A DNA stretch of 64,000 nt from Alkalihalobacillus sp. AL-G (GTDB taxonomy: Bacteria > Bacillota > Bacilli > Bacillales > Fictibacillaceae), in NCBI RefSeq assembly GCF_030643805.1, contig NZ_CP094656.1, positions 2,914,001 through 2,978,000 on the forward strand, in the 5' to 3' direction. Both the position numbers and the translations under genes were made by a program. The notes under the pieces were generated by a model. That model saw only the letters and a program-made list of their open reading frames with translations, did not search any database and was not told the DNA's origin. Positions 11,430 through 23,792 of the stretch are shown here, piece after piece. Numbering within the stretch: position 1 is the first letter of the stretch; each line of letters starts with the position of its first letter.

Positions 11430-11523
11430 GTATTTCACTCCTTAAATCGATTCTATCTTACATAATTGCTCTTCTACATCATATGTAAGATTCCTCCATT
11501 TCTTTGTTAGGAGTATAAGTTTG

Positions 11524-11553
11524 CCCGTTACCTTATGTGGTCTTCGATTTAAC
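11524..11553 (+). repeat. Island repeat, degraded copy
   Basis: CGTTACCTTATGTGG followed by TCTTCGATTTAAC resembles the stem and loop of the full copy at 15390, but the second arm is eroded. Confidence 0.4.
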
Positions 11554-11574
11554 TGGCCCAAGTCCTCAGTAACA

Positions 11575-11616
11575 GGCAATCACCCTGCACAGGAATTGCC
11601 CCTTATATGGAATAAG
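11575..11616 (+). repeat. Island hairpin repeat, copy 1
   Basis: GGCAAT (11575-11580) pairs with ATTGCC (11595-11600), followed by the tail CCTTATATGGAATAAG, identical to the tail of the 15390 copy. Located 66 bases 3' of the stop of the 47-residue ORF. Confidence 0.7.
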
Positions 11617-11681
11617 TAGATATCCACTATTAGCACGTATAGTGAAAAAGAGATTTTAAACAATCGTACCTGTTAGTCGAA

Positions 11682-11825
11682 TTACCCCAAAATAAACCCT
11701 ACGATTGTTAAAGAAAAAATTATTGGTATCATACAACCAATACCCAAACAACCTTCAAATAAGTTATCGAGAAATGAACGGAATTTATCTTTCTTAGTCT
11801 CCTTGTTATTAAACAATTGAGACAT
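11682..11825 (-). CDS. Small membrane protein (47 residues)
   Basis: Polar N-terminus (MSQLFNNKETKKDKFRSFLD) followed by one hydrophobic helix (GCLGIGCMIPIIFSLTIVGF) and an immediate stop. The ribosome binding site is weak (GGTGGG). No family recognised. It sits in the island with the same orientation as its neighbours and has a repeat copy 3' of its stop. Confidence 0.5.
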   Translation of the reverse strand: MSQLFNNKETKKDKFRSFLDNLFEGCLGIGCMIPIIFSLTIVGFILG

Positions 11826-12128
11826 ATTTCCCACCAACCTCAGAAATTCATATGATTAAACTTCTTTCCATACTTCTTTCCAAATCCTATTAAAAATAAG
11901 TTCCACTTTTTCTCCAACAATACTTTCAACTTTCTGGAACGGAGTACGCAAAAGAACATTCATTAAAAATAAAAAATATATTCAAATCGCTTATTATGTG
12001 AAATCATAGAAATTTTGCACATGCAACTATCACTAGGATTAAGTAAAATGCTACTGCAATGAATATTTTAAACTTTATACCTTCTATATCCTTAGTTTAA
12101 GATTTAAGGGAAAAACCAACCCATTAAC
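11826..12128. other. Gap without a convincing gene
   Basis: AT-rich sequence. A 35-codon minus-strand ORF (11856-11963) lacks a ribosome binding site. A hydrophobic frame ending at 12004 reads IEGIKFKIFIAVAFYLILVI but has no usable start codon, so it may be the remains of a small membrane-protein gene. Confidence 0.5.
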
Positions 12129-12422
12129 TCACTTCTTTCGTTTCAAATCATGCTTTTGAGCACTTGTAATAATGAAGGTTAAAATGGACAAAATAATTAG
12201 CCCAAATAAAATAAATGCACCAATAATTATCATACTATTTATAATATCCAATTTAAATGAGATCGATATAATTAGTCCCAATGTTCCACCTATTAAAGCT
12301 CCAACTGTCAAAAATACTTTTGTTTGATTAAATCCTTTTATTTTTATGAGGTATAAGCCGATAGCTATATATAAAATTGGAATAATGATTGGTATAACGT
12401 TATTTAATAAGTCATTATTCAA
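12129..12422 (-). CDS. Small integral membrane protein (97 residues)
   Basis: Three hydrophobic segments (about 10-25, 38-55 and 62-88) and a basic C-terminal tail (KHDLKRKK), which predicts the C-terminus inside. Start is TTG 12422, 8 bases after AAGGGGAG. Function unknown; an island gene. Confidence 0.6.
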   Translation of the reverse strand: MNNDLLNNVIPIIIPILYIAIGLYLIKIKGFNQTKVFLTVGALIGGTLGLIISISFKLDIINSMIIIGAFILFGLIILSILTFIITSAQKHDLKRKK

Positions 12423-12827
12423 AGCGGAACTCCCCTTCGTAAAAAACTATTAACAATTAGTATTTTCGCGATTGAAATCAACAATGCCTTATCATTCACA
12501 TAATTGCCCGGTTAGAAAAAAAAGCCTTTCCACTAGAAACACCACCTAAATTCAATAAGGAGAGAGTATCCCTATTAAAGAAAAGCCCCCTTTGAAGAAA
12601 AGCGTACCTTTCAGCAAAAAGCCAAATGGTACACTTTTATGAGCAGTATTTTTCTTTTCCAGCTGGTAATGCATACCTGTTACACGGTAGTTTGCTTATA
12701 CTCTACGAATCACTTTTTTGTTTTCTTCCCTTTTAAATTATTTGATTGAGTGTTACCTGCGCCCAAAAAGGAGTTCCAATGTACGCAAAGTGAGGTAATA
12801 CCTTAATTTAATTTCTCACCGAATATA
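12423..12827. other. Gap with a repeat copy only
   Basis: No gene supported. It contains one island repeat copy (12553-12605) and an imperfect hairpin GTACC/GGTAC at 12604-12632. A 41-codon frame starting near 12673 has no ribosome binding site. Confidence 0.5.
12553..12605 (+). repeat. Island hairpin repeat, copy 2 (diverged)
   Basis: CCCTATTAAAGAAAAGCCCC then CTTTGAAGAA matches the loop, second arm and tail of the copies at 18275 and 23693; the first arm is eroded. Confidence 0.5.
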
Positions 12828-13415
12828 CTAATCATTTAATCCCTTTCCATTGAGAATTTTCTGCATATACTTTTCAACCCTTGACTCTCGAGTTTTGGAT
12901 TGTTTGGCTTTAGAAAAATAAAGAATGTATGCTCTTTGCCGTCCCGGCGTCAATGCTTCAAAAGCCGTTTTCAAGGTAGGGACTTCATCGAATTTATTTT
13001 GAAGTTCTTCAGGAATTGTAAGTTCTGTTTTCATTTTCACTTCCAAACCGGCTTTTTCAACTTCAATGGCTTCATTAATATAGGCTTTCAAGATGGGTTC
13101 CATTTCAACTATTTCTTGAACATTGGTGAACCGAATCTGGCGCGCAGCCTGTACATTCTCTGTTTGTTGGATTAAAATCCCATGGGGATCCTTAAACAAG
13201 GCACCTTTGTGAAACAGAAGCGCACAATATTCTTTAAATCCATGTATTAAAACGATGTTTTTATTCTCAAACGTGTAACAAGGATGCATCCACTTAAATT
13301 CTTCGGTCAGCTCACAGTCAAGAACGATATTTCTTAACGTCTCAAATTCTCCCTTCCACTTTTTGGCTTTTCGTAAAAATCCATCAACCTTACGATTCAT
13401 TTTACTATTTGTCAT
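12828..13415 (-). CDS. ydeI: YdeI/OmdA family protein (DUF1801 plus C-terminal OmdA helix)
   Basis: 195 residues closely resembling B. subtilis YdeI: N-terminal DUF1801 fold (KVDGFLRKAKKWKGEFETLR, LTEEFKWMHPCYTFENKN, KEYCALLFHKGALFKD) and a C-terminal OmdA-type region (PEELQNKFDEVPTLKTAFEALTPGRQRAYI). These proteins are annotated as bacteriocin-protection or frataxin-like, with no firm function. ATG 13415 has GAGGGGT upstream; TTG 13418 is an alternative. A mutated duplicate of its 5' end lies directly upstream at 13448-13545. Confidence 0.85.
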   Translation of the reverse strand: MTNSKMNRKVDGFLRKAKKWKGEFETLRNIVLDCELTEEFKWMHPCYTFENKNIVLIHGFKEYCALLFHKGALFKDPHGILIQQTENVQAARQIRFTNVQEIVEMEPILKAYINEAIEVEKAGLEVKMKTELTIPEELQNKFDEVPTLKTAFEALTPGRQRAYILYFSKAKQSKTRESRVEKYMQKILNGKGLND

Positions 13416-13447
13416 CAAGGAACACCCCTCTTCAATTTTTCGATCAA

Positions 13448-13680
13448 CTGACAGTCAAGAATGGATCATTCTCAATTTCTCCAATTCTTTCTGTCACTTT
13501 TTGGCTTTACTTGAATATTCATCAACCTTGACTCGTTTTCCATAACCCACTTGGCAGCTTGCTTGGATTGGTTAAGGCGGACCAAACCTTCTCGATATAG
13601 AGGCGAAATCCTTATTAGATCAACGCCCCCGATTCTTGCTTCTGAGTAATCTTCGAATGATGTATTGAGCTCTCGATCCC
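13448..13680 (-). pseudogene. Decayed ydeI 5' duplicate fused to an unknown gene remnant
   Basis: Bases 13448-13545 align along their length with 13311-13402 inside ydeI. Translated in the matching frame they give RVKVDEYSSKAKK, then a stop in place of Trp, then QKELEKLR. Upstream (to about 13680) a frame reads DRELNTSFEDYSEARIGGVD and LIRISPLYREGLVRLNQSK without a start codon, the 3' end of a gene I do not recognise. Together they look like a duplication or deletion scar. Confidence 0.6.
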
Positions 13681-13707
13681 GTTAGCGTAGCTACACTACA
13701 AACTAAG

Positions 13708-14415
13708 CTAACACCTTACATTTTTGCGTTTGAAACCAAGCTGCCCCCTATCTAAATCCTTTTGAATATTTTCGGAAGCAAGCAGGATACTGCTTTTTTT
13801 CTTGCCCCGCCTGACTTCGACTGGGCCTACTACCTTGGCGGTTTCAACCGCCTTTTCATGGAGTGGCAAATATGAAATCCCGACTGTGTAGATAAAATTA
13901 TTCATAGCAGATTTCGTTCGATCAGGTGAATCGTGAATCGTACTTTCCACCTTATCAAGCATACTGGAAATCTTGCTTGTGCTAAATTCACCGTCCGGGC
14001 GATTACCCAAAAGCCAACAGTAACAACTCCAGCCTGCCGACATCCTAAGTTCTTCACCATTTGCAATCCATTTATCGGCAACATCTTGCGCAATATCGTT
14101 TTCTGCCAAAGTTACTGCAACCACATAATCGGACAGCATATAAAAATACGCCGCATCCATCCAACGTTCAAAATCCGCCTCAGTCATTGTCATTGGGTCC
14201 GCAATGATGCCGGCAAAATACATGGCATCGTAGTTCCCGGTAGCGTAAAGCTGCTCGGCTAAAGGCTGATTTCTCTTGATATTCTTTGCGAGCGGCTTCA
14301 TTTTGCCTGTAGCCACACCAAAAAGCGGCTCGTGTGCACCATTGCTTATGTAAGTCTTTTTAATTCGATCCTTGCCGAGCGCTTCTAGTTCCTGCATAAC
14401 CATTTCTAAATCCAT
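13708..14415 (-). CDS. DNA alkylation repair (AlkD-like HEAT repeat) protein
   Basis: 235 residues, mostly helical, with the AlkD-type opening (MDLEMVMQELEALG...KKTYISNGAHEPLFGVATGKMKPLAK) and HEAT-like repeats. The AlkD family excises N3- and N7-alkylpurines without base flipping; this subgroup (COG4912-like) is less characterised, and I cannot confirm the catalytic Asp/Trp set by eye. ATG 14415 is preferred, with AAGGAAGG upstream; GTG 14424 is the alternative. Island gene, minus strand like its neighbours. Confidence 0.7.
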   Translation of the reverse strand: MDLEMVMQELEALGKDRIKKTYISNGAHEPLFGVATGKMKPLAKNIKRNQPLAEQLYATGNYDAMYFAGIIADPMTMTEADFERWMDAAYFYMLSDYVVAVTLAENDIAQDVADKWIANGEELRMSAGWSCYCWLLGNRPDGEFSTSKISSMLDKVESTIHDSPDRTKSAMNNFIYTVGISYLPLHEKAVETAKVVGPVEVRRGKKKSSILLASENIQKDLDRGQLGFKRKNVRC

Positions 14416-14591
14416 GTATTGCACTTCCTTCCTTTATAATCCCACCTCATTGTATCCATCTAGCTTAGATTCTTTCCTAAGCAATGCTTTAACTTAATGT
14501 AAAAAATCAAAAGTGAAACACAAAGGTTATCCCATATTTTCACTACCTTTTCCCAATATTTTCCATCTGCATAAATTCTTGAGTATAAAAA

Positions 14592-14629
14592 GGTCATCAC
14601 GTTGTTAGGCAATCGCACCCGTTCGTTTA
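14592..14629 (+). repeat. Island hairpin repeat, copy 3
   Basis: GGTCATCACGTTGTTAGGCA then ATCGCACCCGTTCGTTTAA. It overlaps the stop codon of the S51 peptidase gene, so the gene's stop is contributed by the repeat. Confidence 0.55.
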
Positions 14630-15325
14630 ATAATCACCTAAAAATTTTGTCTCCAATTCAATCTCTTTTACTGTCTTATCAAAATAAACCTTATAAGCCT
14701 TGGCATTAGGTCTTGAACTAACGATTTTACTTACATCTTGGTCCATATAGTGTAGAGCAACACCATCAGCAGCAGCAATACCCGACTTTATTTTACCTTT
14801 AGCTACAAATTCCTGATAGGAAGGTCTTCTATTTGATTCTCCATCATAAAGAGGGCAATTACTACCTTTTAGCAAACCTAAACACTCTAATGGTTCAAGT
14901 GCATCCCCAAATGAATCAGTAACTCCTTCTTCAAACCAACAAATGGAACCTGCACTGATGCCAACTAATACTACCCCTTGTTCCCAAGCCTTTTTTAATA
15001 TAATATCTAGTCCCCATTCTTTCCATAAAATCAGTAAATTTTTGGTGTTACCACCGCCAACATAAATTATATCTTTATTTAATAGAAAGCTCTCCAATTC
15101 TCTGGTTTGAGGTTTGAATAATGAAAGATGTGATGGTTTACAATTTTGCTTTTCAAAGAAGTTATAAAACCTTGAAATGTAGTTATCTGAATCTCCACTT
15201 GCAGTAGGAACGAAACAAATCTTGGGCTTTATTTTGCTTGATTGATTAAGTACGTACAAATCCAGCAACGGATTTTCTGGTTCCATAGAGAATCCACCGC
15301 CACCAAGAGCAATCACTTGCCTCAT
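14627..15325 (-). CDS. Peptidase S51 family protein (dipeptidase E-like, YgaJ type)
   Basis: 232 residues of the class-I glutamine amidotransferase-like fold. IYVGGGNTKNLL precedes the nucleophile elbow GISAGSICWF (Ser near residue 125), and ESNRRPSYQEF supplies the region of the His partner. S51 enzymes cleave Asp-X dipeptides or related substrates; the resemblance is to B. subtilis YgaJ rather than PepE of enterics. ATG 15325 has AAAGGATG upstream. A repeat copy overlaps the stop. Confidence 0.8.
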   Translation of the reverse strand: MRQVIALGGGGFSMEPENPLLDLYVLNQSSKIKPKICFVPTASGDSDNYISRFYNFFEKQNCKPSHLSLFKPQTRELESFLLNKDIIYVGGGNTKNLLILWKEWGLDIILKKAWEQGVVLVGISAGSICWFEEGVTDSFGDALEPLECLGLLKGSNCPLYDGESNRRPSYQEFVAKGKIKSGIAAADGVALHYMDQDVSKIVSSRPNAKAYKVYFDKTVKEIELETKFLGDY

Positions 15326-15389
15326 CTGTTTACATCCTTTCCGTTTTTTATGTCTTATTCAACTCTTCAACCCTTTTGTTAGCAATGAG

Positions 15390-15433
15390 GACGATTACCT
15401 TATGCAGCAATCGTCCCCTTATATGGAATAAGG
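15390..15433 (+). repeat. Island hairpin repeat, copy 4 (best-formed)
   Basis: GACGATT (15390-15396) pairs with AATCGTC (15409-15415); the loop region is ACCTTATGCAGC and the tail is CCCTTATATGGAATAAGG. Located 97 bases 3' of the GNAT gene stop. Confidence 0.75.
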
Positions 15434-15529
15434 AAAATTGATTTTAAAAGACCTTTCGGATTTTATGCTGTGGGTAGAGGTTTTCTGGTTTTCTGCTCGT
15501 TAGTTCAAACCAACCTTTTACATTTTGAA

Positions 15530-16414
15530 TTAGGCTTGGGAGGTAAGAGGATGTTTAACTTGGAACAATGGAAACTCATTGTTCCCACTTATTTTTACAA
15601 ATAACACATCATCCCCATTAAAGATATAACGTTGAGTTTTAATCCCTTGATAGTCAGGAGTATAATGGAAGACAATTTTATTAATATCGTAATGAGAAAT
15701 CTTTGAAAGGATTTTATCAATGTTAACCGCTTTTTTACTCACCATATCAAAAATATCTACTTGCCCGTCCTCTTGTTCAAAAATTACAATTGCCTCTTCA
15801 TCCTCAAGGTAATAAATATCATTGTTAAATACATATATACAATAAAACATCAGTAACCCTTGAGTGTTATCCGTCCCAAAGCGTTTTGAAACTGGAACTC
15901 TTTCTAATGCAAGTTCATAAATGAACTTAAGATCATCAATATTACTTCCATCTAATTTACGAATACCTGTTACACCATTTTGACTCGTTGAATACTCCAT
16001 TGAAAACTGATATTCTTTTACTGGCTTAAATCCGAATTTAGGATAAAATTCTAAAACACTTTGATTAGCAAACAAGTACATAAAGTCATATTTATTTTCG
16101 TATTCTTCTAAAACCTTGTTCATTAGACTTGCTGAAAGTCCTCGATCTCGATAATCAGGGTGTGTCATAACTGTCCCTATTTGTATAGCTCTTTTTTTCT
16201 CACCATTTATCACGAATTCCAATAGGTTTACCGAAACATTTGCTATCACTTTATCCCCATCAGTATAAGAAAAGGGAATATAACGGTTATTCCAATATCC
16301 TTTTTGATACCAATCTTCAAAATTTATACCAAATATCAACGTAGCAAGTTCATTGAAACTTTTTCTTAATTTCTCATTATTTTTGTAATCCTTATAAAAA
16401 GTTAATCCTGTCAT
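15530..16414 (-). CDS. GNAT family N-acetyltransferase
   Basis: About 294 residues. The N-terminal GNAT domain has IQIGTVMTHPDYRDRGLSASLMNKVLEEY, i.e. the acetyl-CoA-binding R-x-x-G-x-S/A loop, followed by NQSVLEFYPKFGF typical of the fold; a second, less conserved half (residues 150-294) resembles Eis-like two-domain acetyltransferases. Substrate unknown. Start choice is uncertain: ATG 16414 has GGAG 6 bases upstream, ATG 16426 has AGGTGG 8 bases upstream. Island gene. Confidence 0.75.
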   Translation of the reverse strand: MTGLTFYKDYKNNEKLRKSFNELATLIFGINFEDWYQKGYWNNRYIPFSYTDGDKVIANVSVNLLEFVINGEKKRAIQIGTVMTHPDYRDRGLSASLMNKVLEEYENKYDFMYLFANQSVLEFYPKFGFKPVKEYQFSMEYSTSQNGVTGIRKLDGSNIDDLKFIYELALERVPVSKRFGTDNTQGLLMFYCIYVFNNDIYYLEDEEAIVIFEQEDGQVDIFDMVSKKAVNIDKILSKISHYDINKIVFHYTPDYQGIKTQRYIFNGDDVLFVKISGNNEFPLFQVKHPLTSQA

Positions 16415-16537
16415 CTTCCTCTCCATCCCAATAACCACCTAGTCTAAGTACATTTCTTCATATTCCCAAACCAATATTAACATAAATATCCAGGTTTTGT
16501 TTGGCAGCCTTACTCCATTAATTGAATAATCCAAAAA

Positions 16538-16578
16538 GACGCACTTAATCAAGAAGTGCACCCGATTGTTGAAGATCC
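16538..16578 (+). repeat. Island hairpin repeat, copy 5
   Basis: GCACTT (16541-16546) pairs with AAGTGC (16554-16559), followed by the tail CCCGATTGTTGAAGATCC. A partial tail (CTCCATTAATTGAATAATCC) also occurs at 16513-16532. Confidence 0.7.
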
Positions 16579-16596
16579 TTCTTAAACTGATCTGTA

Positions 16597-16635
16597 TCAG
16601 CTTTATTGCAGAAAAACCCCCGATTATTGAGCAAG
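16597..16635 (+). repeat. Island hairpin repeat, copy 6
   Basis: CAGCTTTATTGCAGAAAAA followed by CCCCCGATTATTGAGCAAG, 19 bases after copy 5. It contains the stop codon of the decayed ORF at 16624. Confidence 0.6.
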
Positions 16636-16894
16636 TATTTTAATCAAACGATATGAAACCATCATTTTTATAATAATAAATGCTTCTAACAGTTGCGACT
16701 CTGAGTATTGGGAAAGTTGCTGTTTTGCATCATTAACTATATCTTGAACAGTTGCTATATTGAACATAAAAATAGTTTGTTATCAATAGCAATTTAGGAG
16801 TATCTCCATTCTTTTTGTTCGTCGCCTGAATATAAGCCAATTTAACTGATTTAGTTTATGAAATTTGGAAAGTAAATCATTTATTTTCATCATC
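16624..16894 (-). pseudogene. Decayed small gene
   Basis: An ATG at 16894 with AGGGGT upstream opens MMKINDLLSKFHKLNQLNWL but stops after 36 codons. A second frame (16624-16767, no ribosome binding site) reads MFNIATVQDIVNDAKQQLSQ, then SESQLLEAFIIIKMM, ending in a repeat copy. Composition and position suggest one ~90-residue cassette-like gene broken by at least one frameshift. No family recognised. The surrounding gap 16415-16977 otherwise holds only repeats. Confidence 0.4.
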
Positions 16895-16977
16895 AATACC
16901 CCTAATTATATTATCACTTCAAAAAGTGCGTGCGATTTTTTTTAACAGAAACGTATCCGTTGGTTGAATTTAGAGTA

Positions 16978-17226
16978 TTATACGCCACCATTGCGAAGAA
17001 CAATTAAATTTATAAGGATTATAATACCAATTGGAAAAATGATAAAAAGAAAAATCATTTTCCACAAGGTTCTTATTGTACTTTTAATAAATAAGATTAT
17101 TGACATTACTATTGTTAATAATATAAATACAATAAAAACCCCTCCTGCCCACAACGGAGGCAGAACAAAATAATAGGAAATAAAAAATAATAAGTAAACA
17201 ATCGCAAAAAATATTAAGTATTTCAA
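16978..17226 (-). CDS. Small integral membrane protein (82 residues)
   Basis: Three closely spaced hydrophobic helices (about 3-22, 28-48 and 58-76) rich in Ile, Leu and Phe. ATG 17226 follows GGGAGGT by about 10 bases, a good site. No family recognised; island gene. Confidence 0.55.
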   Translation of the reverse strand: MKYLIFFAIVYLLFFISYYFVLPPLWAGGVFIVFILLTIVMSIILFIKSTIRTLWKMIFLFIIFPIGIIILINLIVLRNGGV

Positions 17227-17303
17227 AGCTTACCTCCCATGGAAAAATTTTTCTTGGTGATAAACTCTCTTTTAAAAAATATTACCTGAACATAGGGAAG
17301 GTT

Positions 17304-17392
17304 CTTCAATTAAAGCCGCCCCTATAATGGAATACCACCTTCTCACTTAATTTCTTTGTTATCGTAGTATTGCGTCCAATATTTGAAGAATG
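17304..17392 (+). repeat. Island repeat, partial copies 7
   Basis: Two tails without complete stems: GCCCCTATAATGGAATACC ending at 17337, and TGCGTCCAATATTTGAAGAA at 17371-17390, between the DUF4256 gene and the membrane-protein gene. Confidence 0.45.
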
Positions 17393-17447
17393 AAATTAAA
17401 ACTTTTCCCTAGGTGGGTCCGTTCTCAATTTCAAATTTAGCGTAAAT

Positions 17448-18044
<597 letters not shown>

Positions 18045-18217
18045 AAATGGTTTAAGGACTAAACTGCTCCGTTAGCTTTAGAACATTTCTTCACAATCTC
18101 CTCAGTATAGTTTAACATAAATATCCAATTTTCTTTTTGAGTGTTATTCAAGAAATTTGCCCTTATGTACAACAACTATCGAATCGTTTTATTCCGTTAT
18201 CCTGCCGTGGATTGCTT

Positions 18218-18316
18218 AATACCAATTATTTCAAAATTTATGATTTTATCACAAGCCTTTATTTCAAAAAGAAAGACGCTTTCCTTGTTACAGAAAAGCC
18301 CCCCTATGGAATAAGC
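18218..18316 (+). repeat. Island repeat, long form (copy 8)
   Basis: Begins with the box AATACCAATTATTTCAAA (18218-18235). About 40 bases later comes the hairpin GACGCTTTCC-TTGTTACA-GAAAAGC (18275-18299) and the tail CCCCCTATGGAATAAGC. Located about 100 bases 3' of the lipoprotein gene stop. Confidence 0.7.
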
Positions 18317-18418
18317 ATAACAAATAATATTTGGATATTTTTATGTACTGTCCTCTATTTTTTGTTATCGATATAATTGCTCCATGGATAAGCCTCTTTG
18401 CTGAAAGAAAGAACTCTT

Positions 18419-18799
18419 TTATTCAACCTTGCTTAATTTGATAATTTCTTGTTCCTCAACAGAATTAGGATAAATAATTACTTCAACCTCAATCTCGTCC
18501 TTTATATCAACTTCAATAGAATTTGCATCCTTTGCTTTGTAAACACCTTCATCTGTCTTTTGTGCTAATGTTTTAGTTTCTACAATATCTTCAAAACTAA
18601 CAACCATTGGCACTTCATCCTTAGAAAAACCACCTTTAGAAATAGCAGTTATTTCGAGTGATCGCACTTCCCCTTTTACTGATACAACGTCTTGAATTTC
18701 CCAATTTTCATTATGGCCTTCATATGTTCCTGAAATTTCTTTACTTAAACAACCAGTAACTAATATTAAAATTATTATGAAACAAAATAAAACTCTAAT
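18419..18799 (-). CDS. Putative lipoprotein (about 126 residues), unusual start codon
   Basis: A signal peptide (RVLFCFIIILILVTG) with the lipobox VTGC is followed by a soluble, acidic domain of about 105 residues (SGTYEGHNENWEIQDVVSV...). Likely exported and anchored by a lipid; function unknown. The start is odd: AAGGAG lies 9 bases before an ATT codon at 18799, while the only conventional in-frame start, TTG 18808, abuts that site with no spacer. No ATG precedes the signal peptide. It may initiate at ATT or TTG, or carry a start-codon mutation. Confidence 0.55.
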   Translation of the reverse strand: MRVLFCFIIILILVTGCLSKEISGTYEGHNENWEIQDVVSVKGEVRSLEITAISKGGFSKDEVPMVVSFEDIVETKTLAQKTDEGVYKAKDANSIEVDIKDEIEVEVIIYPNSVEEQEIIKLSKVE

Positions 18800-18852
18800 T
18801 TGTACCAACTCCTTATCTAACTATCCCACCACTTTACCTTTAATAATGTTAT

Positions 18853-18880
18853 GGTACAATCTCCTTATTGAATAAACGGA
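18853..18880 (+). repeat. Island repeat, tail only (copy 9)
   Basis: GGTACAATCTCCTTATTGAA followed by TAAACGG matches the tail region of the family. Located 47 bases 3' of the next gene's stop. Confidence 0.4.
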
Positions 18881-18926
18881 ACAATACAACTACTCCACAT
18901 ACCAATAGTGAAGTAACATCTTAGTT

Positions 18927-19241
18927 TTAATTTTTTATATAAGATTTTAGGATTATATTAATAAGCCTATAAATTAAATACAACAAAATAAATATTACAC
19001 TAACAGATAAAACGTAATTGATAATATTAAATTCTCGAAACTCCCAAAAACTATATCCAAAATGCCACGGTATAGGTGGATCAATTTCGGGTACTCCTTG
19101 TTTATAAAAAGGGAATGGAAACCCTAAAACTATCTCCTCTGTTGATTTTATTTCTTCACGAGTATTAAACCTTACCCTTGTAACGAAAACAGTAAATAAT
19201 GTAATTACTAACGAAATAATTATTAGTATTATTTTTTTCAC
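18927..19241 (-). CDS. Two-pass membrane protein (104 residues)
   Basis: N-terminal helix (KKIILIIISLVITLFTVFV), a ~50-residue extracytoplasmic loop with Pro- and aromatic-rich sequence (FPFPFYKQGVPEIDPPIPW), then a second helix (about 75-98). Start is GTG 19241 behind GGGGAG. No family recognised. Island gene. Confidence 0.55.
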   Translation of the reverse strand: MKKIILIIISLVITLFTVFVTRVRFNTREEIKSTEEIVLGFPFPFYKQGVPEIDPPIPWHFGYSFWEFREFNIINYVLSVSVIFILLYLIYRLINIILKSYIKN

Positions 19242-19261
19242 TCAAAAACTCCCCTTTGTTC

Positions 19262-19355
19262 AATACCAATTATTTCAAATAAACAAATTTTACTCAAGGA
19301 TTATTTCCCATCAAAAAAGAGGCATATCTTATTTCAGATACCCCCGTTCAATATG
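19262..19355 (+). repeat. Island repeat, long form (copy 10)
   Basis: Box AATACCAATTATTTCAAA (19262-19279), then GAGGCATATCTTATTTCAGA followed by TACCCCCGTTCAATATG (19319-19355). It supplies the stop codon of the HAD gene ending at 19329. Confidence 0.65.
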
Positions 19356-20015
19356 CTTTGTATTTAATTCAGCTAAAATTGCTTTTAATTCAATTAAATT
19401 ATCAATTATCATATCAGCTTGAGAAAGTTCATCTTCTCGAGCAAAATCAAAATTGCATCCTATTGAAACTAAACGATTATCTTTAGCTGCATTTATATCC
19501 GATAGGCGATCTCCTACTACTGCTGCATTGGTAATATCATATTTTTTTATAATACTCTGAACTAAGTCTGATTTATTCAAAGATTCAATTTGTTGGATAC
19601 TAAATGTTTCAGTAACCCAATTATCCAAATTATAATAACTCACAATTGCTTTTAAATATTCCGTTAAACCATTGCTTGCTATGTAAATTGAACAATTATT
19701 CTCTTTCAAATAACTGAAAACTTCCTTTAGATTAGGATATAAAACACCTTTCCCACTTCTTATATTTTCAACTAATCTTTCCAGAAAATAAGCATTAGTT
19801 TGTTCTCTTACTTCATTGGAATGATTAGGTAACAAAGCTTCCCATACTTTTGGTAAAGGTACACCCATAATTTCACGGTATTTATCAATAGGGGTTACTG
19901 TATCCCATTTATTTAGTGACCGTAAATGGTTAAAAGTATCATCAAGTGACAATTCTAATATCTTATCTGTTTGAAATAGTGTTCCATCCATATCAAAGAT
20001 GAGTGATTGAGACAT
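19329..20015 (-). CDS. HAD-IA family hydrolase
   Basis: 228 residues with all HAD motifs: FDMDGTLF (residues 6-13), SNG in IYIASNGLTEYL, a Lys near SLNKSDLV and GDRLSDINAAKDN. The helical cap between motifs I and II is of the C1 type, as in phosphoglycolate phosphatase-like enzymes. Substrate unknown. ATG 20015 is chosen for AAAGGGAG upstream; an in-frame start at 20054 lacks one. The second HAD gene of the island, not close in sequence to the one at 9981. Confidence 0.8.
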   Translation of the reverse strand: MSQSLIFDMDGTLFQTDKILELSLDDTFNHLRSLNKWDTVTPIDKYREIMGVPLPKVWEALLPNHSNEVREQTNAYFLERLVENIRSGKGVLYPNLKEVFSYLKENNCSIYIASNGLTEYLKAIVSYYNLDNWVTETFSIQQIESLNKSDLVQSIIKKYDITNAAVVGDRLSDINAAKDNRLVSIGCNFDFAREDELSQADMIIDNLIELKAILAELNTKHIERGYLK

Positions 20016-20126
20016 TACTTTTCTCTCCCTTTTAAAATAACAAATTACCTTCAAAGGTTTAGCAAAGAAAGTATGATAATTTAACCAATACTTCTTAAAC
20101 TAAACTGCTGCCTTCAGTAAGAGAAA

Positions 20127-20170
20127 GGCGATCACCTTGTGCGGCAATTGCCCCCGATAATTGAAGACGG
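20127..20170 (+). repeat. Island hairpin repeat, copy 11
   Basis: GGCGATCACC-TTGTGC-GGCAATTGCC then the tail CCCGATAATTGAAGACGG. Located 26 bases 3' of the following membrane-protein gene's stop. Confidence 0.7.
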
Positions 20171-20195
20171 AAATCAACTTAACAACAGGGTCTTT

Positions 20196-20402
20196 TTATT
20201 TCTGTATAGACTTTCTTATCGATTTAACACTGTTATACAATCCAATAAATAATAAAACACTTGTAATAAAATATGGAGCTACATATTGAAAAGTACTTCT
20301 TCCCATATCTGGACCACCGCTACTCCACAAAACTTCATGCCACCAGAATAATCCGAATGCTCCAAGTAAGGTTAAAAGTAAACCTAATATATCTTTTATC
20401 AT
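20196..20402 (-). CDS. Small two-pass membrane protein (68 residues)
   Basis: Two hydrophobic helices (about 5-22 and 42-60) flanking WWHEVLWSSGGPDMGRS. ATG 20402 follows AAGGAGGAA by 7-8 bases and is clearly better than the upstream in-frame ATG at 20450. Function unknown. Confidence 0.6.
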   Translation of the reverse strand: MIKDILGLLLTLLGAFGLFWWHEVLWSSGGPDMGRSTFQYVAPYFITSVLLFIGLYNSVKSIRKSIQK

Positions 20403-20561
20403 TTTTAGTTCCTCCTTTTTCGTTATCAATATTTCACCATAAAAACCCATTTAAAAGAGTCATATTTAAAATGGACAATATAGCCGGATAAAAATATACA
20501 ATATCGTCGCCTTAAATTTCGACAAGCTTCATAATTATATTGATTCCTAGTAGGAGTGTTT

Positions 20562-20662
20562 AATACCAATTATTTCAAAACCAGACGACTAACTCAATCC
20601 TTAATTTTCATAAATAAAGACACTTACCTTATTACAGATAAGCGCGCGATTCTGGAAGAATA
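20562..20662 (+). repeat. Island repeat, long form (copy 12)
   Basis: Box AATACCAATTATTTCAAA (20562-20579), then the hairpin CTTACC-TTATTACA-GATAAG (20623-20642) and the tail CGCGATTCTGGAAGAATAA. Located about 90 bases 3' of the kinase-like gene. The rest of the gap 20403-20751 shows no gene. Confidence 0.7.
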
Positions 20663-20751
20663 ATATTCATTTAAATAAAGCCGTTTTAATTCCGTTAAAC
20701 TCAAAAGAACCGATTGTTTAACAATAGTTCAATTCGATAAAGCAACCAATT

Positions 20752-21339
20752 TTATATATTTTCCATTACTACCTTCGAATTTGTTCTCACATCTTCTAAC
20801 CCATTGACCGTAAGGTCTGCTATTTTACCCACATTACCACAAATATATTTGTATCCATTACCCAATCCTTGAATGTATGATGTAAGAAATCCCTCCACTA
20901 TTTTCAATCTTTCTGAACTATCGACAGTTTTATACTCTACTTGTAAATCCCTTAAGATTCGCCGTGCCAAACAAATGTCGGGCGGCGTATCGACAAATAC
21001 AACAAAGTCCAAGACATCACTTATTCCCTTCCTAAGCCTTCCGAAGGGCTCTTCAACGATTATATACTCAGATGGGATAAGTTCTCGCCCCCAAGGATCG
21101 GTAATTTTTTTGCCATTCCTTAATTGAGTAATGTCTTGATCAAAATTCGGGCTCGTGATCTCACATGGGTCAATCTCATCACCGAGGGATAGTCTCGACT
21201 TCATGTCGTGGGGATAATGTGTGGTTGCTTGATAGGCATCAAAGTAAAGCGCAGCGGCATTCAACTGTTTGGATAGTTCATTGACAAGCGTTGATTTCCC
21301 AGAGCCTGAGGTTCCTGATATTGCGATAATATTCCCCAA
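20752..21339 (-). CDS. P-loop nucleoside/nucleotide kinase-like protein
   Basis: 195 residues starting MGNIIAISGTSGSGKSTLVN, a Walker A motif at the very N-terminus, followed by YFDAYQATTHYP (an Asp-rich substrate loop as in uridine kinase-like enzymes), EEPFGR (Walker B-like) and FVDTPPDICLARRILRD (the LID Arg region). Likely phosphorylates a small molecule; the substrate is not evident. TTG 21339 is preferred because GGAGGAG lies 7 bases upstream and Walker A then falls at the normal distance from the start; GTG 21369 is the alternative. Confidence 0.7.
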   Translation of the reverse strand: MGNIIAISGTSGSGKSTLVNELSKQLNAAALYFDAYQATTHYPHDMKSRLSLGDEIDPCEITSPNFDQDITQLRNGKKITDPWGRELIPSEYIIVEEPFGRLRKGISDVLDFVVFVDTPPDICLARRILRDLQVEYKTVDSSERLKIVEGFLTSYIQGLGNGYKYICGNVGKIADLTVNGLEDVRTNSKVVMENI

Positions 21340-21447
21340 AATAATTCTCCTCCATCCAATGGATAACACCTCGGTTATAATAACTACTTCTGTTCCCTTT
21401 CAAAATTTCCTGCTTTGTTCCACAATCTTGCCTGATGAACAAAGAAA

Positions 21448-21489
21448 GGACGCAATTTTATTCCGGATTGCGCCCTATTCTGGAATACC
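21448..21489 (+). repeat. Island hairpin repeat, copy 13
   Basis: CGCAAT (21451-21456) pairs with ATTGCG (21467-21472), followed by CCCTATTCTGGAATACC. Located 27 bases 3' of the DUF1643 gene stop. Confidence 0.7.
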
Positions 21490-21515
21490 TTAAATCTGGC
21501 TCATTCTTAAAGTAC

Positions 21516-22007
21516 TTAAAATGTTGGACTAAATTCTTTTAAATAAATGCCATTGGCTAATCGTGAAGTATGAACAGGTGGTGTTCGAGAGGAATTATCT
21601 TCAAAATAATACACCATCCTATTATTTAAGAATCTATTCCAGACCTCTTTTTTTCTAGTTCTATATTCCTTATCGCTGCCCCAAGCAACAATAATAGTAT
21701 CAGCACTTTTAACAGCAGTTTGTAAATAGAAATCGTTTTCAATACCAATAAATTCAGGTTTTGCAGACAGTTTCTTTGAGTCAGTTTCAATATAAGCAAA
21801 TAGGTTCACGACTTCTATTGAACCGTAATTCTTATCGATACAAAAATTAAGACAACGATTAATAGATAAATCGTTTTTTAACACATTTGCTATGCTGGGA
21901 TTAAGCATAATTATTGTTGCTTTTTTTAACCTTCTATCCCAAATCCTCGTCAGCGAGTATCTAAAAATAGGGTTTTTAGCATTATCAAAAGTTGCATCAA
22001 ACTCCAT
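21516..22007 (-). CDS. DUF1643 family protein
   Basis: 163 residues. Family pattern visible: IIMLNPSIANVLKNDLSINR then CLNFCIDKNYGSIEVVNLFA, and later IIVAWGSDKEYRTR. DUF1643 proteins are small soluble proteins of unknown function, often carried on mobile DNA. ATG 22007 follows GGGAGGAG; an in-frame start at 22022 would fall before that site. Confidence 0.8.
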   Translation of the reverse strand: MEFDATFDNAKNPIFRYSLTRIWDRRLKKATIIMLNPSIANVLKNDLSINRCLNFCIDKNYGSIEVVNLFAYIETDSKKLSAKPEFIGIENDFYLQTAVKSADTIIVAWGSDKEYRTRKKEVWNRFLNNRMVYYFEDNSSRTPPVHTSRLANGIYLKEFSPTF

Positions 22008-22038
22008 TAGTACTCCTCCCATATATCACACTCCTCTA

Positions 22039-22082
22039 CCGAATCACCTTGTGCAGCAGTCGCTCCCTATTTTTGAATAACG
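22039..22082 (+). repeat. Island hairpin repeat, copy 14
   Basis: CCGAATCACCTTGTGCAGCA then GTCGCTCCCTATTTTTGAAT: same loop (CACCTTGTGCAGCA) as copies 4 and 11. Confidence 0.65.
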
Positions 22083-22098
22083 AACACATTCCAATACT

Positions 22099-22128
22099 TT
22101 TGAATTGCCCCCGACTGTTGAAGACTGA
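22099..22128 (+). repeat. Island repeat, partial copy 15
   Basis: GAATTGCCCCCGACTGTTGA followed by AGACTG, abutting the stop codon of the deaminase gene at 22129. Confidence 0.6.
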
Positions 22129-22548
22129 TTACTTCTCAAATAAGTTATCGCCATCATATGCTGTAGACCAATGATAAGGCTGCACCTCAGATAGTTTTTT
22201 GTAAACAATATTTTCACCTGGTACACTAATTGCAACCTTGACGTTTGGCCCCCAATAAAAGAGTCTTTCTTGGCATATTCCGCACGGCGACAAAACTTTG
22301 TATTCAGAGTGTTCATCATCACGAACTACACATATGGAGTGAGTAACCCGTTTATTTAATTTATGAGCCTCTAAAATAGAACCTGTTTCCATACAAAGAT
22401 TAGTTGAGTCATTAATCACTTCTGGTGCTATACTTGTTAAGACGGTGCCATCTTCTAACCCTATAGCCGCAGCACCCCCCCAACCAATTGGATATCTTCG
22501 TTCTATTAGTTCAATTACTGCTTCATATAATTGTTGTTCAATACTCAT
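22129..22548 (-). CDS. Cytidine/blasticidin S deaminase-like protein
   Basis: 139 residues of the CDA fold. Zinc site: CMETGSILEAHK carries Cys-x-Glu in place of the usual His-Ala-Glu, and SPCGICQERL provides the two remaining Cys ligands. Three Cys ligands with a catalytic Glu is the arrangement of cytidine and blasticidin S deaminases. The protein has an unusual WGGAAAIGLEDGTVLTSIAP substrate loop. It may deaminate cytidine or a cytosine nucleoside antibiotic; substrate not determinable here. ATG 22548 is preferred for GGGAGGC upstream. Confidence 0.75.
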   Translation of the reverse strand: MSIEQQLYEAVIELIERRYPIGWGGAAAIGLEDGTVLTSIAPEVINDSTNLCMETGSILEAHKLNKRVTHSICVVRDDEHSEYKVLSPCGICQERLFYWGPNVKVAISVPGENIVYKKLSEVQPYHWSTAYDGDNLFEK

Positions 22549-22564
22549 TTTTTGCCTCCCTCTC

Positions 22565-22666
22565 AATACATACAAATTATTTCAAATTATTAGATCTAAC
22601 TCAATCATTAATTTCATAATACAGGGGCTTATCCTATTTCGGATAAGCCCCTTATAATGGTATAAC
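22565..22666 (+). repeat. Island repeat, long form with perfect stem (copy 16)
   Basis: A variant of the AATACC...TTATTTCAAA box (22565-22586) precedes an 11-bp perfect stem GGGGCTTATCC (22624-22634) and GGATAAGCCCC (22641-22651) and the tail TTATAATGGTATAAC. Located 22 bases 3' of the DinB gene stop. No U-run follows on the gene strand, which argues against a simple terminator. Confidence 0.7.
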
Positions 22667-22687
22667 TGTAAAGCTAATGAAGCTTTA

Positions 22688-23182
22688 TTAAAAGCTGCGT
22701 TTCCCTGGCCAAGCTCCTTGCATTTTACTAAGGAATACAATTTGCCCAATATGATATGCGTCGTGCATTGCTAAACTCTTCAGTTCAAGCACTAATGAAT
22801 TATCTTCTCCTGGGATCTGTCTATACAAATCTTCATGTTCTGATCTTGCTAGTATTTTTCCAAGTTCACGATGAACATAAAAGTATTCTTGTTTTGTTTC
22901 CTTCCACTTTTCTAACGTCTTAGTTGGTAATCGAAATGTAGAGTCATTATTTTCTGCCTGTTGTTCATTCGCTGTTTCACCAAGAAATCGCATCAGAAAT
23001 CTCTTTTCATAGAAAAGTAAATGACAAACTAATTCCCAAATTGAATTCATTTCCCCATCAGCTGGTTTCCAAATTGCCTGTTCAAAAGTAATATCCTCTA
23101 GCACTTTTTCAAGTGGTGGAAACCAGTCTTCTTCATCTAAGCAGCTTGCCCATTGTTGTAACAAAAGTGTCTTTATATCCAT
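22688..23182 (-). CDS. DinB family protein
   Basis: 164 residues, four-helix bundle type. Candidate metal-binding His residues: one in WELVCHLLFYEKRF and the closing pair in HDAYHIGQI, the usual DinB triad. DinB/YfiT-like proteins include bacillithiol- or mycothiol-dependent thiol transferases (BstA type), a plausible role in stress resistance. ATG 23182 has GAAGGGAA upstream. Confidence 0.8.
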   Translation of the reverse strand: MDIKTLLLQQWASCLDEEDWFPPLEKVLEDITFEQAIWKPADGEMNSIWELVCHLLFYEKRFLMRFLGETANEQQAENNDSTFRLPTKTLEKWKETKQEYFYVHRELGKILARSEHEDLYRQIPGEDNSLVLELKSLAMHDAYHIGQIVFLSKMQGAWPGKRSF

Positions 23183-23286
23183 TTTCTATTCCCTCCAATT
23201 TCATCCCTTTAATAGATAATCCCTTTGGTCAAAATTCACTTGCGGCATGTTGTAGATAGCTCACTAATTAAGGTGTCATGCCAATT

Positions 23287-23324
23287 CCTTGTTCAATTAA
23301 ACCCCGATTGTTGAAGATCTTAAG
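23287..23324 (+). repeat. Island repeat, partial copy 17
   Basis: TTGTTCAATTAAACCCCGAT followed by TGTTGAAGATCTTAAG, the tail form seen at 16561. Confidence 0.5.
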
Positions 23325-23401
23325 TACTATGTCTTTTTGAATTAACGTACCCAATAGTTGAATACATCTGCAGTAGCATTTGATTGGATCACTTATGCTT
23401 C

Positions 23402-23585
23402 TTACGGACAACAGATCCGTTATTTCCATAAAACACACTATTTCAAGAGATGTTACGGACAGAGAATCCGCTATTTGCATAAATAGGCTTCAAAATAGCC
23501 GTTTTTTCATGCATTAGCGGATCGAGTGTCCGTTAGTTCCCCAAAATGACCGATTTTTCAAGAATAGCGGAACCTCAGTCCGTTA
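23402..23585. repeat. Array of four 21-bp dyads at 50-62 bp spacing
   Basis: Dyads at 23402-23422, 23453-23473, 23515-23535 and 23565-23585 share the form TTACGGA or TAGCGGA, about 7 bases, then TCCGTTA or TCCGCTA. The intervening stretches are related A/T-rich sequence (CATAAAA..., TTTTTCAAGAA). The first two units carry ACGG on the left arm, the last two GCGG. Confidence 0.65.
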
Positions 23586-23606
23586 GTAGGAAAATAACGA
23601 ACATCC

Positions 23607-23640
23607 GCCTTGTTCCACAATCGGCTTTTCTGGAATTACC
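23607..23640 (+). repeat. Island repeat, partial copy 18
   Basis: CCTTGTTCCACAATCGGC followed by TTTTCTGGAATTACC; the same TTGTTCCACAATC string occurs at 21415. Confidence 0.45.
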
Positions 23641-23692
23641 TAGAAATCCGATTTTAGACCCTTTAAACTCTTCTGTGTTTGTTATCATTAAA

Positions 23693-23734
23693 GGCGCTTT
23701 CCTTATGAAGAAAAGCGCATTATTTTTTCATAAC
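23693..23734 (+). repeat. Island hairpin repeat, copy 19
   Basis: GGCGCTTTCC-TTATGAA-GAAAAGCGC, then ATTATTTTTTCATAAC. Located 59 bases 3' of the second DinB gene. Confidence 0.7.
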
Positions 23735-23792
23735 AAGTAGTCTTATATAAGTTACGGTGCTTGTTTGATTGATCCAAATAAACTATTTATTG

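What the first reader, a model, noticed from the sequence alone, without database searches (positions are those of the whole stretch)
11520..23740. One hairpin repeat family sits just 3' of nearly every gene in the accessory island
At least 12 recognisable copies plus 6 or more partial ones occur between 11.5 and 23.7 kb, all in the same orientation. A typical copy has an arm such as GACGATT or GGCGATC, a loop ACCTTATGCAGC or ACCTTGTGCGGC, the complementary arm, and a tail CCxxATxxxTGGAATAAG or CCCGATTGTTGAAGATC. Copies lie 0-100 bases downstream of stop codons on the gene strand, and three supply the stop codon itself (14627, 19329, 16624). All genes share one strand and are unrelated in function (GNAT, HAD, kinase, deaminase, DinB, AlkD-like). 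This is the layout of an integron-type cassette array (ORF plus recombination site). The arms vary by compensating changes, so structure rather than sequence seems conserved. Alternatives are mobile terminators or a MITE family preferring gene ends. No integrase is in the window. I found no functional evidence.
Basis: partly seen in the sequence, partly recalled or inferred. Interest (0 to 1): 0.75.

Follow-up and report, generated by a model that had tools for sequence, protein, structure and literature searches.

The report
Integron-like gene cassette system in Bacillaceae
The repeat behind the genes looks like a recombination site that lets single genes move as interchangeable cassettes between Bacillus-type chromosomes and plasmids, and a matching enzyme gene sits elsewhere in the same genome; it works like an integron in a group of bacteria where integrons are almost unknown.

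Summary
Eighteen repeat copies in the window score 12 or more; all lie at 11.65-23.37 kb on the gene strand, none inside a gene. From 785 distinct sites in 89 stretches the repeat resolves into a 34-bp palindrome, 14-bp inverted arms round a 6-bp GGGNGC spacer, the anatomy of a tyrosine-recombinase site. The covarying hairpin is real but overlaps the right half of the site and looks like a terminator in a subset. The 14.5-kb pheT-rnhC island is absent from 12 of 12 relatives examined. Units recur at 87-97% identity in other arrays and on plasmids of other genera; a minority of homology ends, far above chance, fall at the core. One natural empty/occupied pair maps a crossover to the 6 bp. The genome carries a 282-aa tyrosine recombinase inside another array; 58 of 58 relative loci scored hold a core, 55 at least three. 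It is not IntI. Ten literature searches listed no description. No experiment shows activity.

The parts
11652..11685 (-). core site (score 18.7)
11569..11613 (-). hairpin-bearing copy 'a' (R1 41.5 bits; training row of R1; not scored by the core matrix)
12571..12604 (-). core site (16.6)
13611..13644 (-). core site (16.0); plasmid homology of the AlkD-like cassette stops at its spacer
14601..14634 (-). core site (27.4), overlaps the stop codon of ORF 14627-15325
15399..15432 (-). core site (28.1)
16544..16577 (-). core site (30.5), second of a double core 58 bp apart
16602..16635 (-). core site (26.8)
16939..16972 (-). core site (13.6)
17358..17391 (-). core site (15.2)
18143..18176 (-). core site (25.2)
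18270..18314 (-). degenerate copy with terminator-like hairpin, missed by the core matrix; start of a ~107-bp gene-less unit shared with the 3.12-Mb array
19314..19358 (-). degenerate copy, missed by the core matrix; leader ends in TTTGAAATAATTGGTATT
20136..20169 (-). core site (29.5), 5' boundary of the HAD unit
20628..20661 (-). core site (30.1)
21414..21447 (-). core site (15.7), pair with 21456 (42 bp apart)
21456..21489 (-). core site (18.2)
22048..22081 (-). core site (21.6), pair with 22093 (45 bp apart)
22093..22126 (-). core site (15.3)
22633..22666 (-). core site (19.0), 3' boundary of the DinB unit
23303..23315 (-). TTCAACAATCGGG, left arm and spacer start at the 5' boundary of the DinB unit; not scored as a core
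23333..23366 (-). core site (26.2)
23687..23731 (-). hairpin copy nearest pheT, core score only 8.2
19256..20165 (-). HAD unit; copy at own genome 1.225 Mb (L050 8741-9650), 97.4% over 910 bp; its shared 3' end includes the next leader
22642..23315 (-). DinB unit; copy at L050 11792-12467, 95.9%; plasmid homologs in Peribacillus and Priestia
13625..14514 (-). AlkD-like unit; 87.5% homolog on a Metabacillus plasmid, 3' end at the spacer of the window core
12129..12422 (-). cassette ORF, no Pfam
12828..13418 (-). cassette ORF, DUF1801/OmdA
13708..14424 (-). cassette ORF, DNA alkylation repair
14627..15325 (-). cassette ORF, peptidase S51
15530..16438 (-). cassette ORF, GNAT
16978..17226 (-). cassette ORF, no Pfam
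17448..18044 (-). cassette ORF, DUF4256
18419..18808 (-). cassette ORF, no Pfam
18927..19241 (-). cassette ORF, only a sub-threshold Pfam match (RTA1)
19329..20054 (-). cassette ORF, HAD hydrolase
20196..20450 (-). cassette ORF, no Pfam
20752..21369 (-). cassette ORF, PRK/uridine kinase-like
21516..22022 (-). cassette ORF, DUF1643
22688..23182 (-). cassette ORF, DinB_2

Best explanation
The island is a gene-cassette array of a site-specific recombination system. Each repeat holds a 34-bp recombination core: left arm (about CTTATTCAACAATC), 6-bp spacer GGGNGC, right arm (about ATTGTTGAATAAG, an inverted copy of the left arm). A dedicated 282-aa tyrosine recombinase, encoded in another array of the same chromosome at 1.383 Mb, binds the arms, cuts at the spacer and recombines two cores. 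That excises the stretch between them, probably as a circle, or inserts it at another core. A unit therefore runs from one spacer to the next and holds one short gene, sometimes several, or none. Gene-less units are mostly about 41-46 bp with a terminator-like hairpin, or about 100 bp with a hairpin and a promoter-like stretch. The spacer is asymmetric, so units join in one direction. Shown: the core, its orientation, unit boundaries at the core, recurrence of units across arrays, plasmids and genera, one empty/occupied pair, and the recombinase gene inside such arrays. Inferred: that this recombinase is the enzyme, the circular intermediate, and that the hairpin ends transcription.
For: Core: the matrix iterated from 785 distinct sites in 89 stretches matches its own reverse complement (mean column correlation 0.885 at the spacer centre; next best 0.11); 864 plus-strand hits at score 11 or more against 13 in base-shuffled sequence (697 on the minus strand, as a palindrome gives). 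Orientation: 109 of 112 cores in nine array stretches of the own genome point the same way. Boundaries, own genome: of the units shared by two arrays, a 0.52-kb unit has both ends at cores in both copies, the HAD unit its 5' end, the DinB unit its 3' end. Boundaries, 146 non-integrase matches (200 bp or more, 75% or more), ends counted within -20 to +22 bp of a spacer: 31 of 138 3' ends and 11 of 129 5' ends lie at a core in both partners, against shifted-control means of 0.24 (maximum 2) and 0.76 (maximum 4). Empty/occupied pair: Rossellomorea sp. AcN35-11 carries a 3,587-bp block with six inner cores between two cores; Bacillus sp. RO3, with about 98% identical flanks, has the single joined core there, and the switch falls within GGGGGC. 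Lineage-specific island: pheT and rnhC are 47-3,337 bp apart with no core of score 12 in 12 of 12 relatives examined, against 14,479 bp and 18 cores here. Plasmid homologs: the P. asahii LURP unit has both ends at cores in both copies, the Peribacillus DinB homolog its 3' end. Recombinase: gene at 1.383 Mb next to a core; catalytic R, H, R, H and Y invariant and K nearly so in 22 aligned sequences; of 79 loci 58 with a nearly full match were scored, all 58 have a core of score 12 and 55 have three or more. Co-occurrence: repeat hits in 30 of 31 genomes with the recombinase (whole or broken) and 71 of 118 without, p 2.6e-5, not corrected for kinship.
Against: No experiment. Only one clean empty/occupied pair was found, and three other length differences between those two loci are not at cores. 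Most match ends, 107 of 138 (3') and 118 of 129 (5'), are not at a core in both partners; part of these are ordinary genes or introns. Of six plasmid pairs examined, only one has both ends at scored cores; the Metabacillus AlkD match stops at the window core but the plasmid has no scored core there, the HAD match begins in core-like sequence 47 and 62 bp from the nearest scored cores, the Priestia DinB copy ends at a left arm without a right arm, and the peptidase-S51 pair does not end at cores. Several genomes, for example G031 with 34 repeat hits and G006 with 20, have no recombinase at E<=1e-60. In 22 of 58 loci no core lies 100-260 bp upstream of the recombinase gene. In the 60-65% identical plasmid relatives the sites are weak (18 hits at E<=1 in four loci, one in L070). 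Five of 15 island ORFs lack a core within 100 bp of the stop. An IS200-like (HUH) transposase gene lies at the edge of the 1.22-Mb array (L050 2949-3413). The role of XerC/XerD or another enzyme at these cores was not excluded.
Confidence: 0.86

Rival explanations
1. The repeats are only transcription terminators, or terminators spread by homologous recombination, and gene shuffling follows from homology between them.
For: A subset has a strong hairpin: 291 of 786 cores have a stem of 9 or more pairs (188 in a half-swapped control), followed by a T tract (4.87 of 9 bases against 2.77). The hairpin covaries. A plain terminator scan of the island gave 11 sites against 7.8 (sd 2.6) in shuffles, three of them at repeat copies, so the scan alone gives no strong support.
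Against: The shared part is a palindrome that exceeds the hairpin; by the same stem measure most cores have a shorter stem. The crossover maps to 6 bp within a region where the two parents share only short homology. A terminator family would not need a linked recombinase or a fixed asymmetric spacer.
Confidence: 0.06
2. The repeat is a MITE, REP or IS-derived element that inserts behind genes, and the recombinase (or an HUH enzyme) is the transposase of a larger relative.
For: Inverted-repeat character, gene-end preference, the ~107-bp gene-less unit recurs, and an IS200-like Y1 transposase gene lies at the edge of one array.
Against: What moves is the DNA between two sites, of widely varying length (742 core-core intervals, median 695 bp), including genes; an element inserted by transposition would have constant ends round a constant body. 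HUH/RAYT genes were not searched for in the other arrays.
Confidence: 0.04
3. It is a true integron remnant (CALIN): attC arrays whose IntI was lost or lies elsewhere.
For: Same layout: tandem single-gene units, one orientation, varied functions; double cores mostly 41-46 bp apart resemble attC in size and in having outer arms round a hairpin. The model that P0001 just passes (NF040815, 220.9 of 220 bits) bears the product name 'site-specific tyrosine recombinase/integron integrase'.
Against: No protein of this genome reaches the IntI cut-off (7 stretches, best 96.5 bits against 265), and the array recombinase skips IntI profile positions 180-236 as XerC and XerD do. The crossover lies in GGGNGC, not in the GTTRRRY core recalled for attC. 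A published survey found one complete integron in all Firmicutes (PMC9024848, passages).
Confidence: 0.03
4. The cassettes move by the host XerC/XerD proteins, like Acinetobacter dif modules, and the 282-aa recombinase is only a passenger.
For: The site has the same general build as dif sites (recalled); arrays occur without the recombinase in many genomes.
Against: The recombinase family is separate from XerC/XerD (29-33% identity; own branch, 100/100) and 55 of 58 loci scored have three or more cores near it. Whether the core resembles this genome's dif site was not tested.
Confidence: 0.07

Closest known systems
Integrons (IntI, attI, attC; chromosomal cassette arrays)
   Same: Tandem arrays of mostly single-gene units with varied accessory functions, one orientation, a tyrosine recombinase encoded in some arrays and absent from others, units shared between chromosomes and plasmids, group II introns at the sites (the last recalled for integrons).
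   Different: No IntI; core is a 34-bp palindrome with a GGGNGC spacer; the recombinase gene seems to be itself a unit of the array; gene-less units carry terminator-like (and promoter-like) stretches; hosts are Bacillus-like genera.
dif modules (pdif sites, XerC/XerD) of Acinetobacter plasmids
   Same: Genes between short tyrosine-recombinase sites that move as modules between plasmids and chromosomes (PMC6449649, passages).
   Different: Dedicated recombinase instead of host XerC/XerD (as argued here), long chromosomal arrays with sites in one direction; likeness of the site to dif was not tested.
XerA / XerC / XerD simple tyrosine recombinases
   Same: Length, domains, catalytic residues; best NCBIfam model is XerA_Arch (220.9 bits, cut-off 220), PDB best match 4a8e.
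   Different: Separate branch from the host's own XerD and XerC (32.7% and 29.3%), several copies in some genomes, patchy distribution.
Cre-loxP
   Same: 34-bp site of two inverted arms round an asymmetric spacer (loxP anatomy recalled, no call).
   Different: 14-6-14 instead of 13-8-13; natural role is array building.

Membership tests
Integron | IntI integrase with its specific insertion in the catalytic domain | tested here: not met
   TIGR02249: P0001 103.2 bits in the protein scan, cut-off 265; in the six-frame scan profile positions 180-236 are skipped. Insertion described in PMC8138268 (passages).
Integron | attC sites with GTTRRRY-type crossover box (recalled) | tested here: not met
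   In the one mapped case the crossover lies in GGGGGC; core consensus. No attC covariance model was at hand.
Integron | attI primary insertion site next to the integrase | tested here: inconclusive
   A core lies 100-260 bp upstream of the recombinase gene in 36 of 58 loci, but it looks like any other core and arrays lie on both sides in many loci.
Integron | Array of mobile, mostly single-ORF cassettes in one orientation | tested here: met
   109 of 112 cores one way; 84 of the 113 array ORFs listed were scanned and matched 69 Pfam families; units shared between arrays.
Integron | Recombination of a folded single strand | not testable with these tools
   Double cores could fold so, but boundaries at single cores also occur.
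dif modules | Sites similar to the chromosomal dif site and recombined by XerC/XerD | not tested
   The dif site of this genome was not located.
dif modules | Genes flanked by short tyrosine-recombinase sites that move between replicons | tested here: met
   (sequence evidence only).
Tyrosine recombinase | Catalytic residues R-K-H-R-H-Y | tested here: met
   R140, H231, R234, H257, Y266 invariant and K164 nearly so in 22 sequences; assignment of the residues to their roles is from general knowledge.
Intrinsic terminator | G+C-rich hairpin followed by a T tract on the gene strand | tested here: met
   In a subset: 291 of 786 cores with a stem of 9 or more pairs, with T enrichment; the plain scan of the island gave only 11 against 7.8; transcription not tested.

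The most novel reading that the evidence does not exclude
Bacillales possess their own, independently evolved counterpart of the integron: a dedicated Xer-derived integrase and 34-bp cores that capture, order and spread single-gene cassettes, each able to carry its own terminator and promoter, across chromosomes and plasmids of many genera. The double-core sites may even have converged on attC-like folding.
Probability: 0.7. Interest if true: 0.93.

Novelty: new variant of a known kind. Interest (0 to 1): 0.88.

Why it matters
Integrons explain much of the gene turnover of many Gram-negative bacteria but were found to be extremely rare in Firmicutes (PMC9024848, passages). A widespread cassette system with its own recombinase in Bacillus-like genera would give that group a comparable route for acquiring single genes, could explain many small accessory genes (GNAT, NUDIX, DinB, glyoxalase, HAD) in its islands, let annotators mark cassette boundaries to the base, and give a second, independent case for asking how cassettes arise and are expressed. 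It may also be a usable site-specific recombination tool.

Tried and rejected
A DNA search with one copy over 60 genomes gave mostly chance-level matches. A 16-bp half-site matrix gave boundary statistics on HSPs dominated by the recombinase itself; the full 34-bp core replaced it. An exact 30-base core pattern had no match in viral contigs. Comparing the pheT-rnhC gap of the nearest relative with the island showed no homology beyond chance-level pieces, so the exact insertion point of the island is unknown. A tree with wrongly extracted Xer reading frames was discarded and redone. REP/RAYT, MITE and CALIN readings were considered and rejected as given under rivals; HUH genes were not searched for, but one IS200-like gene turned up at an array edge. 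PADLOC models of the array proteins (25 of 67 models shown) were largely reverse-transcriptase and homing-endonuclease models, all but one hit by a single protein; not taken as a defence island. A possible leading-strand orientation of all arrays was noticed, but the origin was not located, so nothing is claimed.

Literature: (all ten allowed, open PMC text only). I read the listings, and passages of PMC9024848, PMC6449649, PMC8138268 and PMC8618304. None of the listed titles or abstract starts describes this system; most papers were not opened and most subscription journals are not held.

Full report
What was checked. The window is part of a 4.16-Mb single-contig genome (2,914,001-2,978,000). 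The genes at 11-24 kb lie on the - strand between pheT (24482-26914) and rnhC (9035-10009). The proteins are unrelated: DUF1801/OmdA, AlkD-like, peptidase S51, GNAT, DUF4256, HAD, uridine-kinase-like, DUF1643, DinB.

From hairpin to core. Six copies in a hand-chosen register gave a first covariance model. It found 48 matches at E<=10 in the whole genome; by position 41 of the 48 fall into seven clusters (near 1.22, 1.37, 2.30, 2.93, 3.12, 3.19 and 3.50 Mb). In eight stretches 56 matches at E<=0.5 all lay on the array strand, two of them the same site in overlapping loci and one (window 8267) outside the island. The contexts then showed that the conserved part extends to the left of the hairpin. 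Iterating a 34-bp matrix over 89 stretches (1.587 Mb) gave 785 distinct sites and the consensus GTTCTTCAACAATC GGGCGC GTTTGTGGAATAAG. The matrix correlates with its own reverse complement at 0.885 when centred on the spacer and at most 0.11 elsewhere; 864 plus-strand hits at score 11 compare with 13 in base-shuffled sequence. This is the anatomy of a tyrosine-recombinase core: two inverted 14-bp arms and a 6-bp asymmetric spacer.

In the window 18 cores score 12 or more, all at 11652-23366 and all on the - strand; outside the island the best is 10.5. Some copies seen by eye are degenerate and missed by the matrix (18270-18314, 19314-19358, the TTCAACAATCGGG at 23303-23315). Ten of 15 ORFs have a core within 100 bp behind the stop, against 2.56 in rotations, and no core is inside an ORF. 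In nine array stretches of the genome 109 of 112 cores point the same way.

The hairpin. Covariation of the stem is strong (0.503 against 0.195), with the caveat that the alignment was fitted to the structure. Of 786 cores 291 have a stem of 9 or more pairs (188 when 3' halves are swapped), and these are followed by more T (4.87 of 9) than cores with short stems (2.77). A plain terminator scan of the island found 11 sites against 7.8 (sd 2.6) in shuffles; three are repeat copies. The hairpin is best read as a terminator present in a subset, overlapping the right arm. Of 742 intervals between neighbouring cores 131 are 30-60 bp; 84 of 118 listed double cores are 41-46 bp apart. Longer gene-less units of about 100 bp end in TTTGAAATAATTGGTATT; three of them in the window contain TTGAGT-17-AATAAT, a promoter-like stretch, although promoter-like matches as a whole are no more frequent than in shuffles there (51 against 53.1).

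Units move as units. Inside the genome the HAD unit (window 19256-20165) recurs at 1.225 Mb with 97.4% identity, the DinB unit (22642-23315) with 95.9%, and a 0.52-kb unit of the 1.23-Mb array recurs in the 3.5-Mb array with 93.7%. The last has both ends at cores in both copies. The DinB unit has its 3' end at a core; its 5' end is at a core in the 1.22-Mb array and at an unscored TTCAACAATCGGG in the window. The HAD unit begins at a core, but its shared 3' end includes the next leader. Over 146 non-integrase matches of 200 bp and 75% or more between stretches, 31 of 138 3' ends and 11 of 129 5' ends lie within -20 to +22 bp of a spacer in both partners; shifted controls give 0.24 (maximum 2 of 200 rounds) and 0.76 (maximum 4). 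Pairs are not independent: grouped into 88 families, 16 of 84 have such a 3' end and 8 of 82 such a 5' end. The rest includes ordinary chromosomal genes and group II introns.

Across genera, plasmids carry relatives of these units (30 record rows; the cyanobacterial, Lactiplantibacillus and B. velezensis rows among them lie on phosphoenolpyruvate-synthase or transposase genes). Six of the rows were examined at their ends. The LURP unit of the 3.5-Mb array matches a Peribacillus asahii plasmid with both ends at cores in both. The DinB homolog on a Peribacillus plasmid (95.9%) has its 3' end at a core in both. The AlkD-like match to a Metabacillus plasmid (87.5%) stops at the spacer of the window core, but the plasmid (GATCGGTGGC there) has no scored core. 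The HAD match to a P. frigoritolerans plasmid begins in core-like sequence (CAACTATCGGGGCAGGTTAGTTGAAG), 47 and 62 bp from the nearest scored cores. A Priestia DinB homolog stops at the same left arm, where no right arm follows. A peptidase-S51 homolog does not end at cores. A Peribacillus array gave matches in 8 plasmid records; three were examined: one lies between cores on both sides (ends within 28 bp of the spacers), one has its 5' end at a core, one its 3' end at a weak core.

Empty and occupied site. Rossellomorea sp. AcN35-11 and Bacillus sp. RO3 share about 98% identical flanks. The first has a 3,587-bp block between two cores, with six inner cores and five ORFs of 60 aa or more on the array strand (one more on the other); the second has one joined core there, followed in both by the partner of a double core. 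Left of the spacer the empty site follows the left core, right of it the right core; the switch falls within GGGGGC. Three other length differences between the two loci are not at cores.

The island is new in this lineage. PheT was located in 33 relatives; the gap to rnhC was examined in 12, all 7 of the genus and 5 of 13 others of the family. It is 47-3,337 bp with no core at score 12.

The recombinase. Six matches to the tyrosine-recombinase family exist in the genome at E<=0.001. One (1.383 Mb, 282 aa, P0001) starts about 170 bp behind a core in the 1.37-Mb array. It is closest to a XerA-type model whose NCBI name also says 'integron integrase', 32.7% and 29.3% identical to the host's XerD and XerC, and on a separate branch. 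The catalytic residues are conserved in 22 chosen sequences. A scan of the genome collection gave 79 loci of relatives, named for Bacillus-like genera apart from a few MAGs; the 58 with a nearly full match were scored: all have a core of score 12 or more and 55 at least three (L099, L103 and L116 have one or two); 524 cores lie on the recombinase strand and 68 on the other. Of 38 upstream flanks of these loci printed, 26 hold a core within 300 bp; by eye the flanks before it are unrelated and homology starts at about GGGCGC, so the gene seems to be itself a unit (statistics: 61 of 474 5' ends and 73 of 473 3' ends at a core in both, controls 5.4 and 1.2). In 149 genomes the gene, whole or broken, was found in 31 and repeat hits in 101; hits are more frequent with the gene (30 of 31 against 71 of 118; mean 7.1 against 2.7), uncorrected for kinship. 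Identity runs against vertical descent: in the same-genus genome G004 it is 64% (a partial match) while PheT is 76%, in G013 and G019 of another genus 84% while PheT is 63%. Plasmid relatives at 60-65% identity have weak sites nearby.

Comparison. It works like an integron or like dif modules. It is not filed as an integron: no IntI reaches the cut-off, the IntI-specific stretch is absent, and the crossover box differs. It differs from dif modules by a recombinase gene of its own in the arrays. I therefore call it a new variant of a known kind; if the recombinase is shown to act at the cores, it is an independent cassette system of Bacillales.

Limits. No activity was shown. Covariance-model E-values are rough. 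Only one empty/occupied pair was found. Arrays without the recombinase are common. An IS200-like transposase gene at the edge of one array was not followed up. On checking, confidence was set from 0.87 to 0.86 because fewer plasmid ends than first written lie at scored cores.

Noticed in passing
L059 2704-2890 and 9002-9177, L105 1786-1961, L130 6673-6848, L115 5069-5253: Group II introns (RF02004, RF00029) begin directly behind the left arm and spacer of a core, so that no full core is scored there (ends); group IIC introns are known to insert at terminators and attC sites (recalled).
   Followed up: partly
L050 2949-3413: An IS200-like Y1 (HUH) transposase gene lies at the edge of the 1.22-Mb array.
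   Followed up: partly
L052 16866-17202: The large 3.5-Mb array lies just 3' of the tmRNA gene.
   Followed up: no
window 10953-11438: A protein of the Cass2 family ('integron-associated effector binding protein') and GyrI-like fold borders the island.
   Followed up: no
double cores, e.g. window 21414/21456 and 22048/22093: Cores often come in pairs, 84 of 118 of them 41-46 bp apart with a hairpin between; the outer arms could pair in a single strand as in attC (mean 9.1 of 14 positions against 8.3 with the own right arm).
   Followed up: partly
L173 1515-2059: A Priestia plasmid DinB gene ends in a left arm without a right arm, a half-site.
   Followed up: no
L071 8001-8843: A 62% relative of the recombinase, with small genes beside it, is on a plasmid recorded as Arthrobacter citreus, an actinobacterium (CP053689.1); the label or a distant transfer would need checking.
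   Followed up: no
window 38794-39017, 33907-34046, 32909-32975, 28127-28248, 53151-53217: T-box leader, L20 leader and three Bacillaceae-1 RNAs.
   Followed up: no
own genome arrays at 1.2-2.3 Mb (+) and 2.9-3.5 Mb (-): Arrays in the first half of the numbering run on +, those in the second half on -, which may follow replication direction; the origin was not located.
   Followed up: no
G031 and G006: Genomes with many repeat hits (34 and 20) but no recombinase at E<=1e-60: arrays that may have lost it or use a diverged one.
   Followed up: no
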